From Oscillospiraceae bacterium (GTDB lineage: Bacteria > Bacillota > Clostridia > Oscillospirales > CAG-272), in assembly GCA_015064355.1 (NCBI GenBank), contig SVSJ01000023.1, positions 1 through 41,318 on the forward strand: 41,318 nucleotides of DNA, written 5' to 3'. Below the pieces are notes generated by a model, which did no database searches, was not told where the DNA came from, and saw only the letters and a program-made list of their open reading frames with translations. The translations under genes were made by a program, and so were the position numbers. Below are positions 28,016 through 30,168 of this stretch, piece after piece (within the stretch, counting starts at the first letter, position 1; every line of letters begins with the position of its first letter).

Positions 28016-28975
28016 TTACTTTACAAGGTGATAAGCGAAACCGTTGATCTCGTCTGCAAGATAGATGAACTTCATGGAGCCGTCCTTGTCGAATGTTGCG
28101 GAATCCATATCGAACTTCACGCCGCGACGGCTGAGGTGATATACTGCACGGTCAACGCTGTTTGTGGAAATAGCGATGTGGCCGCACTTGCCTCTGCCCA
28201 TACCGTTCATTACTTCAAACTCGGGAGAAACAAATGTGCTTGCAGATCTCTTGTCTGTGGGGAAGGAGAAAATGGAATTCAGAGCGTTTACGTTGTCCTG
28301 TGCTGCGTTTTCATCAGCAGAGTTGATACCGATATGGCGGAACTTGAAGCCGAGCATTGCGTCAACAGCTTCGCGAACCAACTTTGCGATACCGTCAAAG
28401 TCGCCTGCTGCGATCATTTTTGCATCAACCATCCAGCTACCACCGCAGCAGAGGATCTTGTTGAAGGAGAGGTAGTCGTTTACGTTGCCGGGGTTAACAC
28501 CTCCTGTGGGCATAAACTTAACGCCGCCGTAAGGGGCAGCCATAGCTTTGATCATCTTGATGCCGCCGGACTGTTCTGCGGGGAAGAATTTTACAACGTC
28601 GAGACCAAGGGACAGAGCCTGCTCGATACCTGTGGGGTTATTGATACCGGGAACGATTGGGCAGCCCTTTTCCTGACAATATTTAACGATCTCGGGGTTG
28701 AAACCGGGGCTTACGATGAACTTTGCGCCTGCTTCGATGGCGTCGTCAACCTGCGCCTTTGTAAGAACGGTGCCTGCGCCAACGATCATTTCAGGGTACT
28801 CTTTAGCGATAATGGAGATAGCTTCTTTAGCGGCAGCGGTACGGAAGGTAACTTCAGCGCAAGGAAGGCCGCCCTCGATAAGAGCCTTTGCAAGAGGAAC
28901 TGCGTCCTTTGCGTCGTCGATCTTGATTACCGGCACGATACCGATAAGGGATAATTCTTTGATAATATCGTTCAT
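28016..28975 (-). CDS. KDPG/KHG aldolase fused to a C-terminal VOC-like domain
   Basis: Predicted 319-residue cytosolic protein. Residues 1-207 are a complete class I KDPG/KHG aldolase: E41 in AEVTFRT, GAGTVLT, SPGF and the Schiff-base Lys129 in VVKFFPAE, then FMPTGGV. It cleaves KDPG to pyruvate and glyceraldehyde 3-phosphate. Residues 208-319 are an extra domain: GFKFRHIGINSADENAAQ, GKCGHIAISTNSVDRAVYHL and GSMKFIYLADEINGFAYHLV have the beta-alpha-beta-beta-beta pattern of vicinal-oxygen-chelate (glyoxalase/bleomycin-resistance) domains. Normal Eda is about 210 residues. The role of the extra domain is unknown; oligomerisation or ligand sensing is possible. ATG at 28975 has AGAGGT six bases upstream; an in-frame start at 29035 lies upstream of the -10 box. 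First gene of the operon. Confidence 0.88.
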   Translation of the reverse strand: MNDIIKELSLIGIVPVIKIDDAKDAVPLAKALIEGGLPCAEVTFRTAAAKEAISIIAKEYPEMIVGAGTVLTKAQVDDAIEAGAKFIVSPGFNPEIVKYCQEKGCPIVPGINNPTGIEQALSLGLDVVKFFPAEQSGGIKMIKAMAAPYGGVKFMPTGGVNPGNVNDYLSFNKILCCGGSWMVDAKMIAAGDFDGIAKLVREAVDAMLGFKFRHIGINSADENAAQDNVNALNSIFSFPTDKRSASTFVSPEFEVMNGMGRGKCGHIAISTNSVDRAVYHLSRRGVKFDMDSATFDKDGSMKFIYLADEINGFAYHLVK

Positions 28976-29150: not shown

Positions 29151-29376
29151 ACTGCGCGTGAGGCGCAATATTTGCCTACGCGGCTGGCGCACAGGGATAC
29201 TCGTGTCGTACCCCTGTGAACCCCGGCACCAAAGAGTAGAGGAACACTTGCGTGTTCTGATTCTCTCCTCTTTGGAATCTCCTCTCTTGGCACAACGTGC
29301 AGGTTAAATTCGTTAGTTCACCTTCCGTGGCTTCACCAGTTTAGTAAGGCTAAATCGTTTGTTGGGTTTCGAATTA
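29151..29376 (+). ncRNA. structured repeat element, unit A (candidate RNA)
   Basis: No credible coding sequence. Stems: CACAGGG (29190-29196) with CCCTGTG (29212-29218) plus inner TAC/GTA around TCGTGTC; AAAGAG (29231-29236) with CTCTTT (29268-29273), extended by AGAG/CTCT, with an apical AACAC-TTGC-GTGTT hairpin; AGGT/ACCT around ATTCG (29301-29323); and TTTAG-TAAGG-CTAAA (29340-29354). Unit B at 29727-29967 has the same order, loops and spacing but different stem sequences that still pair, so structure rather than sequence has been kept. Strand is inferred from GNRA loops in the neighbouring cluster. It may be an RNA or a palindromic mobile repeat. Confidence 0.6.
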
Positions 29377-29384
29377 GCATAGTC

Positions 29385-29710
29385 AATTAAACCTATGGTT
29401 TAGTTTTTCTGAATTTAGAAAAGCCAATGTTAGTGAAAACATCTGTGCCAAATCGAACCGAGGCGGGCGAGTTTTCACTATGCGTGAAGACTGTAAGCCA
29501 AGGACGACCACACTAATAAGCTTCTACTCTCGTTGAAAACAAAGGGGGAATTCTTAAAGGGGGAAATTGAGCCTGCTCCTTTCCCCCTTTAAGTGCCTGG
29601 ATTCATAAGGAGGTGGCATGAACCTCCTTATGTTCCGTGCGAAAGCACGGGTGGTATATATCGCTTTGTGCGAACAAAAAGAATCCCACCCCCGAGGATT
29701 TCATCCTCGG
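29385..29710 (+). ncRNA. cluster of strong hairpins between units A and B (candidate RNA)
   Basis: Successive stems: TAAACC-TAT-GGTTTA near 29388-29402; TTTTCT/AGAAAA near 29406-29422; TAGTGAAAAC (29431-29440) with GTTTTCACTA (29471-29480); 14 perfect pairs between 29553-29566 and 29580-29593; 11 pairs between 29604-29614 and 29622-29632; CCGTGC-GAAA-GCACGG (29635-29650); TTTGT-GCGA-ACAAA (29665-29678); and CCGAGGAT-TTC-ATCCTCGG (29692-29710). GAAA and GCGA are GNRA tetraloops only when read on the plus strand, which points to a plus-strand RNA. Short reading frames here are repeat artefacts. Confidence 0.55.
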
Positions 29711-29726
29711 TTCGTTCGGTTTTTGC

Positions 29727-29967
29727 ACTGCGCGTGGGGCGCAATCTTTGCCTACGCGGCTGGCGCAAAAAGCACTACGCGTGAGGCGCCCCAGGAGGTT
29801 CGTGCCACTCCCTGGGGAACCCCGGCTCTCAAGGAGGGAGGCTTGCGCTGATTCTCCCTCCTTAAGAATCCTCCCTCTTGGCACCACGTGCACAGCAGAT
29901 TCGCAAGGATGCTGTCCGTGGCTTCACCAATTTAGTAAGGCTAAATTGATAGTTGGGTTTCGAATTA
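29727..29967 (+). ncRNA. structured repeat element, unit B (candidate RNA)
   Basis: Stems: CCCCAGG (29789-29795) with CCTGGGG (29811-29817) plus inner GGT/ACT around TCGTGCC; AAGGAGGGAG (29831-29840) with CTCCCTCCTT (29854-29863), ten perfect pairs, with apical GC-TTGC-GC; ACAGCA (29892-29897) with TGCTGT (29910-29915) enclosing ATTCG; and TTTAG-TAAGG-CTAAA (29931-29945). Conserved single-stranded blocks shared with unit A include AACCCCGG, TTGC, CTGATT, CTTGGCAC and CCGTGGCTTCACCA. The end, GTTGGGTTTCGAATTA, is identical in both units. Confidence 0.6.
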
Positions 29968-29985: not shown

Positions 29986-30013
29986 GTAGGGGACGGCGTC
30001 CTCGACGTCCCGC
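29986..30013 (+). repeat. dispersed palindromic repeat, copy 6
   Basis: Same core as copy 1 (GTAGGGGACGGCGTCC). It is followed by a TCAGGTTTAAACC flank and, at 30076-30104, by a nine-pair hairpin CGAGGTTTC/GAAACCTCG that recurs in modified form after copy 8. Confidence 0.85.
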
Positions 30014-30139: not shown

Positions 30140-30168
30140 TTGACATATAAGTTGTTTTTTGCTATTAT
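30140..30168 (+). promoter_or_regulatory. promoter of potABCD
   Basis: TTGACA (30140-30145), 17-base spacer, TATTAT (30163-30168). Confidence 0.8.

What the first reader, a model, noticed from the sequence alone, without database searches (positions are those of the whole stretch)
29151..29967. Two-copy structured element with compensatory changes in at least three stems
Units A (29151-29376) and B (29727-29967) share single-stranded blocks (AACCCCGG, TTGC, CTGATT, CTTGGCAC, CCGTGGCTTCACCA) and identical ends, but their stems differ and still pair: CACAGGG/CCCTGTG versus CCCCAGG/CCTGGGG with the same 15-base loop span; AAAGAG/CTCTTT versus AAGGAGGGAG/CTCCCTCCTT; AGGT/ACCT versus ACAGCA/TGCTGT around a shared ATTCG. 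Retained pairing despite sequence change indicates selection on structure. GGCAC after stem 2 could pair with the GTGYC loop of stem 1, a possible pseudoknot. I know of no described RNA with this layout.
Basis: seen in the sequence. Interest (0 to 1): 0.78.

Follow-up and report, generated by a model that had tools for sequence, protein, structure and literature searches.

The report
Dispersed foldback repeat with swapped hairpins
The two look-alike units are pieces of a non-coding, mirror-symmetric DNA repeat scattered between genes of this bacterium and some relatives, in which hairpins change sequence yet stay paired; it resembles known scattered palindromic repeats but matches no described family that I could find, and what it does is not known.

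Summary
In detail: units A and B share joints, differ in stems, and the stems still pair. But they are not a two-copy RNA. Each is the left half of an inverted-repeat element of about 450 bp (mirror half at 29539-29638, minus strand). Searched stretches of the window's genome hold 45 half-elements in 20 places. A covariance model of the half (hairpin H1, joint, hairpin H2) matches 24 of 395 family genomes (E<=1e-4), 18 of 394 order genomes (E<=1e-6) and, of 398 phylum genomes, only the own. Pairing is kept across genomes: 95.4% of cells, 144 two-sided changes against 40.5 in shuffles. Hairpin alleles are recombined as blocks and homogenised within a genome, so exchange among copies or template switching could give much of the covariation. 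No Rfam match. In the own genome odd pairs lean to G.U on the minus strand (11 vs 2 distinct changes, p=0.02), which also folds better: an RNA from that strand stays possible. Best reading: a new family of BIME/REPIN-like foldback repeats, mobilising enzyme unknown; REP/RAYT membership not met. Mobility is inferred, not shown.

The parts
29151..29190 (+). outer repeat of the element's left end: CACTGCGCGTGAGGCGCA, then TTTGCCTACGCGGCTGGCGC
   Evidence: direct repeat with 29726-29767, 95% over 42 nt; similar letters at left ends of several own copies
29184..29289 (+). left half-element of unit A (H1 29190-29218, joint, H2 29229-29275, pyrimidine-rich strand)
   Evidence: R1 cmsearch 86.8 bits, E 2.7e-25; the window's halves are in the model's seed
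29301..29338 (+). third hairpin AGGT/ACCT and CCGTGGCTTCACCA block
   Evidence: sequence; similar block in many of the own copies printed
29441..29507 (+). partly conserved centre block (CAAATCGAACC ... CTGTAAGCCAAGGAC)
   Evidence: 13 aligned elements, 8 own and 5 SIG667; a 12-mer of it with up to 2 substitutions was not found inside the element in 14 loci of other genomes
29539..29638 (-). right half-element, inverted copy of the left half (H2' 29553-29593, H1' 29604-29632)
   Evidence: R1 cmsearch 95.0 bits on minus strand, E 7.7e-28
29650..29710 (+). spacer hairpin module GGTGGTATAT...AATCCCACC and CCGAGGATTTCATCCTCGG between elements
   Evidence: similar modules at other own loci
29727..29790 (+). 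outer repeats of unit B (two copies of CACTRCGCGTGRGGCGC, one TTTGCCTACGCGGCTGGCGCA)
29783..29880 (+). left half-element of unit B (H1 29789-29817, H2 29828-29866); no right half follows it
   Evidence: R1 cmsearch 101.4 bits, E 7.6e-30; no minus-strand full-length partner to its right
29892..29929 (+). third hairpin ACAGCA/TGCTGT and CCGTGGCTTCACCA of unit B
   Evidence: sequence

Best explanation
A family of non-coding, dispersed, imperfectly palindromic intergenic DNA elements (foldback repeats, BIME/REPIN-like in organisation). The unit is two half-elements in inverted orientation, each with two hairpins, around a centre of about 240 bp; units also stand in arrays and as truncated pieces. 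Shown: copy number, inverted architecture, a two-hairpin fold kept in several genera, hairpin alleles recombined as blocks, and same-genome copies more alike than copies at shared loci in the sister MAG. Inferred: copies spread in the past through a folded single-stranded or cruciform DNA form whose hairpins are the recognised feature, and are homogenised within each genome by recombination and gene conversion, so that stems often change as whole cassettes and stay paired. The mobilising enzyme is not identified.
For: 29 matches to unit A and 51 to the middle in the own genome; 45 own and 34 SIG667 half-elements, many in opposing pairs; left and right halves of one element align with mean score 24.9 against -8.8 for shuffled letters; 8 own elements with both halves measure 441-452 nt, one of them cut by a contig end. 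Covariation: A2, 43 halves, 92.7% of cells paired, 178 two-sided cells vs 51.9 shuffled and at most 45 slid; A3, 29 rows from the window and 11 other genomes, 95.4%, 144 vs 40.5 and at most 25. H1 and H2 alleles occur in several combinations. Multi-copy in 8 genomes of the genus, own included, and in G066, G092, G223 and G250 of other genera; 0 of 397 other phylum genomes at E<=1e-6. 8 of 20 own stretches share at least one flanking gene with a SIG667 element stretch, yet in 7 of 7 scored pairs the counterpart half is not the closest SIG667 half.
Against: No target-site duplication, empty site or excision was shown: the aldolase loci of G019, G012 and G024 hold no copy of the other flanking gene. 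No transposase is tied to it: the own genome has one Y1 transposase, IS200-like, and 8 of 11 other element-bearing genomes have none; R1 finds no half-element in the four Y1 loci. Other transposase families were not searched. Sharing of loci with SIG667 fits vertical inheritance as well as mobility. Part of the centre is conserved between two species, unusual for a pure MITE (general knowledge). The strand lean of odd pairs is not predicted by a purely double-stranded DNA role.
Confidence: 0.45

Rival explanations
1. A large structured non-coding RNA (about 450-500 nt, multi-copy) made from the minus strand of the window, with hairpins under selection as RNA.
For: Minus strand folds better for both units (z -3.9, -4.2 vs -2.5, -2.1). 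Own left halves have 43 A.C and 1 G.T cells on the plus strand, i.e. G.U on the minus strand; collapsed over own halves, 11 G.U vs 2 A.C distinct changes on the minus strand, p 0.022. So on that strand G.U intermediates do exist. Partly conserved centre; fold kept across genera.
Against: Promoter-like sites for both flanking genes lie outside the element and face away (29051-29023 minus, 30140-30168 plus), and no terminator-like site was found, by consensus scan only. Alleles are swapped as blocks. Recombined copies are not independent and biased deamination could give the same lean; the middle folds equally on both strands (z -5.5 and -5.4); in half orientation the other genomes show no such lean (13 A.C, 7 G.T), but their strands were not resolved. 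No expression data.
Confidence: 0.25
2. No selection on structure: palindromes are created and repaired by template switching in replication, and copies are mixed by homologous recombination; the covariation is a by-product.
For: Two-sided changes outnumber one-sided ones (G.U plus A.C): 178 vs 76 cells in A2, 144 vs 24 in A3; mosaic alleles; known mechanism (PMC8794818, abstract seen); other palindromes sit inside hairpins of some SIG667 copies.
Against: Does not by itself explain why the same layout (two hairpins, GAATC-type joint, inverted mate) is kept in genera with otherwise unlike sequence.
Confidence: 0.2
3. Host-useful chromosomal sites (gyrase or nucleoid binding, bidirectional termination), kept in place because they work there.
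For: Loci shared with SIG667; in G008 (both ends of two elements) and G015 (one end) terminator-like hairpins lie at the element's ends, by eye.
Against: Own loci include divergent, convergent and tandem gene pairs (longest-ORF reading by eye); no terminator-like site in the window copy; only 24 of 395 family genomes show a match (a lower bound).
Confidence: 0.1

Closest known systems
BIME / REP doublets (REPINs) of proteobacteria and some other bacteria (PMC2817692, PMC3116915, passages read)
   Same: extragenic, many copies, palindromic units in inverted pairs and in arrays, modular, compensated arm changes
   Different: half-unit of about 100 nt with two hairpins instead of a short single-palindrome REP; unit of about 450 bp; no REP-associated transposase found beside it
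BOX elements of Streptococcus pneumoniae (PMC3049150, passages read)
   Same: modular composite repeat in a Firmicute, strongly folded, inverted ends, variable module number
   Different: no sequence comparison made; the modules here are two-hairpin halves and occur in several genera
MITEs with terminal inverted repeats (general knowledge; bcr elements of Bacillus cereus recalled only)
   Same: non-coding, inverted ends, dispersed
   Different: no target duplication or parent transposon shown; inverted ends are long and themselves folded

Membership tests
REP/REPIN (RAYT-mobilised) | extragenic palindromic units in inverted pairs, many copies | tested here: met
   intergenic setting from longest ORFs on each side
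REP/REPIN (RAYT-mobilised) | a REP-associated Y1 transposase gene flanked by the repeats | tested here: not met
   one PF01797 gene in the own genome, IS200-like by eye; PF01797 in 3 of 11 other element-bearing genomes; no half-element in the four loci around these genes, about 1.5 kb each side where the contig allows; MAGs incomplete
MITE | terminal inverted repeats | tested here: met
   inverted halves
MITE | target-site duplication / empty site | tested here: inconclusive
   none obvious by eye in the few elements read; no syntenic empty site at the window locus
MITE | related autonomous transposon with the same ends | not tested
   only PF01797 was searched genome-wide
Rfam RNA families (ROOL, GOLLD, OLE, HEARO, raiA and the rest of release 15) | score at or above the gathering threshold | tested here: not met
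   0 matches in the window; one permissive match, 18.9 bits against 44 needed; in 12 related loci two tRNAs and one S10 leader, none on a half-element
structured non-coding RNA | transcribed from one strand | not testable with these tools
   no RNA-seq available
BOX elements | sequence similarity to boxA/boxC | not tested
   no BOX model was at hand

The most novel reading that the evidence does not exclude
An order-wide class of large, multi-copy, nearly mirror-symmetric structured RNAs (or single-stranded-DNA replicons) transcribed or copied from one strand, whose hairpins are exchanged as cassettes while part of the centre is kept: a selfish structured element with its own unknown copying enzyme.
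Probability: 0.17. Interest if true: 0.85.

Novelty: new variant of a known kind. Interest (0 to 1): 0.5.

Why it matters
It shows, in one genome and its relatives, that strong covariation can belong to a dispersed palindromic repeat whose hairpins are swapped as blocks, so covariation alone should not be read as proof of a functional RNA. It also gives these metagenome-assembled genomes a repeat family, with a model, that probably breaks assemblies and can be traced between species; what spread it, and whether one strand is transcribed, are open, testable questions.

Tried and rejected
Two-copy RNA: rejected, 45 half-elements. Pseudoknot GGCAC/loop: not supported. Rfam: none on the element. 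REP/RAYT: transposase feature not met. Coupling of left and right halves of one element: not above permuted partners, p 0.27. Conserved places across genera near gyrB and rnpA: first taken as shared places; by eye the element lies on different sides of these genes in G066 and in the own genome, so I dropped it. RNAalifold on 13 whole elements was weak (-21.87 kcal/mol), as the alignment between species fails in the left half; the minus-strand alignment was not folded. Family search with the 1021-nt query: 87 of 295 genomes, two candidates scored per genome; nearly all listed matches outside the own genome are a separate small palindrome (query about 911-989; the exceptions are G001 at 524-614), so not used as element counts. 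First automated pair count gave G.T 33 and A.C 28 over six patterns, with the H1 pattern matching nothing and others catching unrelated sequence; replaced, where left and right halves were assigned by hand from allele type. Exact 20-mer scan of genome contigs found nothing.

Rows dropped: of 79 half-element hits, 55 were near full length and 51 of these distinct; 49 went into A1 (two long ones left out) and 43 into A2 (six SIG667 halves with a long H2 insert left out; with them A1 gives 90.2% paired). A3 holds two L144 stretches twice, once on each strand. Nine own/SIG667 pairs were tried, seven could be scored. Integron attC and hammerhead ideas were considered by eye only and dropped.

That holds only for G.U on the half's own strand (16 of 989 cells in A2); A.C cells are 60 of 989 and would be G.U on the other strand. 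I therefore lowered the DNA-repeat reading from 0.50 to 0.45 and raised the RNA rival from 0.20 to 0.25 and the novel case from 0.15 to 0.17.

Literature: searches showed no title that describes this element; I judged from the listings (one search listed 10 of 74, 10 of 14), read passages of PMC2267715, PMC8040213, PMC2817692, PMC3049150 and PMC3116915 and the abstract and start of PMC8794818. The library lacks most subscription journals.

Full report
The window is contig C19 of a 2.17 Mb, 57-contig genome (79.9% complete). The finding lies in the intergenic space between a KDPG-aldolase gene on the minus strand (28019-28975, PF01081) and an ABC-transporter ATPase gene on the plus strand (from 30206, PF00005). 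The best promoter-like sites for the two genes (11 of 12 matches each, consensus scan only) are outside the element and face away from it, so the element appears to sit between two divergent promoters.

The units are not a pair. Unit A has 29 matches in the own genome and the sequence between A and B has 51. A profile built from eight seeds and iterated once gives 45 half-elements in 20 own stretches and 34 in the fetched stretches of a second MAG, Oscillospiraceae bacterium SIG667. SIG667 was found through an 18-base pattern (24 stretches, of which 12 SIG667, 11 Cephaloticoccus, 1 Acidobacteriaceae; the 5 of 11 Cephaloticoccus copies read have a different context). It seems to be G005 of the same genus, since hits in G005 and in the SIG667 handle have the same contig coordinates (inference). 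In the window the halves are +29184-29289, -29638-29539 and +29783-29880 (86.8, 95.0, 101.4 bits). A is therefore the left half and the middle the right half of one element of about 450 bp; B is a further left half with no right half after it. Eight own elements with both halves measure 441-452 nt (one cut by a contig end); their left and right halves align far above shuffled letters, but no better within an element than between elements (p 0.27).

Each half has hairpin H1, a joint, hairpin H2 and a pyrimidine-rich strand. On 43 aligned halves (36 own, 7 SIG667) 92.7% of 989 cells pair, with 178 two-sided changes against 51.9 in shuffles and at most 45 in slid controls. Keeping six SIG667 halves with a long H2 insert, which misalign, gives 90.2%. 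On 29 rows from the window and 11 other genomes of five genera, aligned to the model and so leaning towards it, and with two L144 stretches present on both strands, 95.4% pair, with 144 two-sided changes against 40.5 in shuffles and at most 25 slid. Fold conservation thus reaches other genera.

How the stems change matters. Two-sided changes outnumber one-sided ones: in A2 178 cells against 16 G.U and 60 A.C, in A3 144 against 8 and 16. H1 and H2 alleles occur in different combinations, for example CCCCAGG with both the CTCAAGG and the CCAAAG type of H2. At 8 of 20 own stretches at least one flanking gene (70-100% amino-acid identity, the 100% over only 59 residues) also flanks an element stretch in SIG667 (only fetched stretches were compared). 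In all 7 pairs that could be scored, of 9 tried, the counterpart half (80-87%) was not the closest SIG667 half (91-95%), and in 6 of 7 it was below the median likeness to other own loci, with a tie in the seventh (a gap-lenient identity). Copies within a genome are homogenised. Recombination or gene conversion among copies, or template switching (PMC8794818, abstract seen), would give this, and it weakens covariation as proof of an RNA.

There is one sign for single-strand folding. In own left halves the odd pairs are 43 A.C against 1 G.T on the plus strand, that is G.U on the minus strand; collapsed to distinct changes, own halves give 11 G.U and 2 A.C on the minus strand (p 0.022). Recombined copies are not independent, and strand-biased deamination would give the same, so I treat it as a hint. 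In SIG667 (8 A.C, 3 G.T distinct changes in half orientation) and in the other genomes of A3 (13 A.C, 7 G.T cells) the strand was not resolved.

Distribution by covariance model R1, own genome included: 24 of 395 family genomes at E<=1e-4, 8 of them of the genus, with at least 12 other genomes of the genus in the sample listed without a match; 18 of 394 order genomes at E<=1e-6, 14 of the 17 others with a single match; 1 of 398 phylum genomes, the own. Ten candidates per genome were scored, with strict filters, so these are lower bounds, and weak single matches may be chance. Unit A as plain DNA was found in the own genome only, 1 of 25 of the genus. Five order-level loci were read: L199, L201 and L202 have an inverted mate, spanning 429, 548 and 370 nt; L198 has a weak adjacent one; L200 none.

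Comparison. It is organised like REP doublets and BIMEs, whose reports also note preserved palindromes and compensated changes (PMC2817692, PMC3116915, passages read), and like modular BOX repeats (PMC3049150, passages read). A REP-associated transposase was not found: one IS200-like Y1 gene in the own genome, Y1 genes in 3 of 11 other element-bearing genomes, and no half-element around any of these four genes. Other transposase families were not searched. Mobility itself is inferred, not shown. No Rfam family matches the element.

Verdict: a real, structured, dispersed foldback repeat family, new as a family as far as these searches show, of a known general kind; RNA function possible but unproven.

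Noticed in passing
29987-30013: Small palindrome TAGGGGACGGCGTCCTCGACGTCCC right of unit B; short matches to it account for nearly all listed matches outside the own genome when 87 of 295 family genomes matched a 1021-nt query. It looks like a separate, much wider palindromic repeat.
   Followed up: no
L106 and L089 (SIG667), around the element: Other palindromic modules sit inside hairpin loops or arms of the element, giving nested palindromes.
   Followed up: no
L084, L087, L088, L090, L094 (Cephaloticoccus capnophilus): The 18-mer CACTACGCGTGGGGCGCA lies in 11 stretches of this unrelated genome; in the 5 that were read it is followed by GCCGCAGGCTG: apparently another dispersed repeat.
   Followed up: partly
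L165:1293-1374 and 1988-2069 (G008): An element lies between two tRNA genes with identical scores, apparently a duplication around it.
   Followed up: no
C41:1, C55:1 and the end of C5 in the own genome: These element copies run into contig ends, so the repeat probably breaks the assembly and true copy number is higher.
   Followed up: no
L141, L165 (G008) and L145 (G015): Terminator-like hairpins with an A run before and a T run after lie at both ends of the element in L141 and L165 and at the one end visible in L145, by eye.
   Followed up: no
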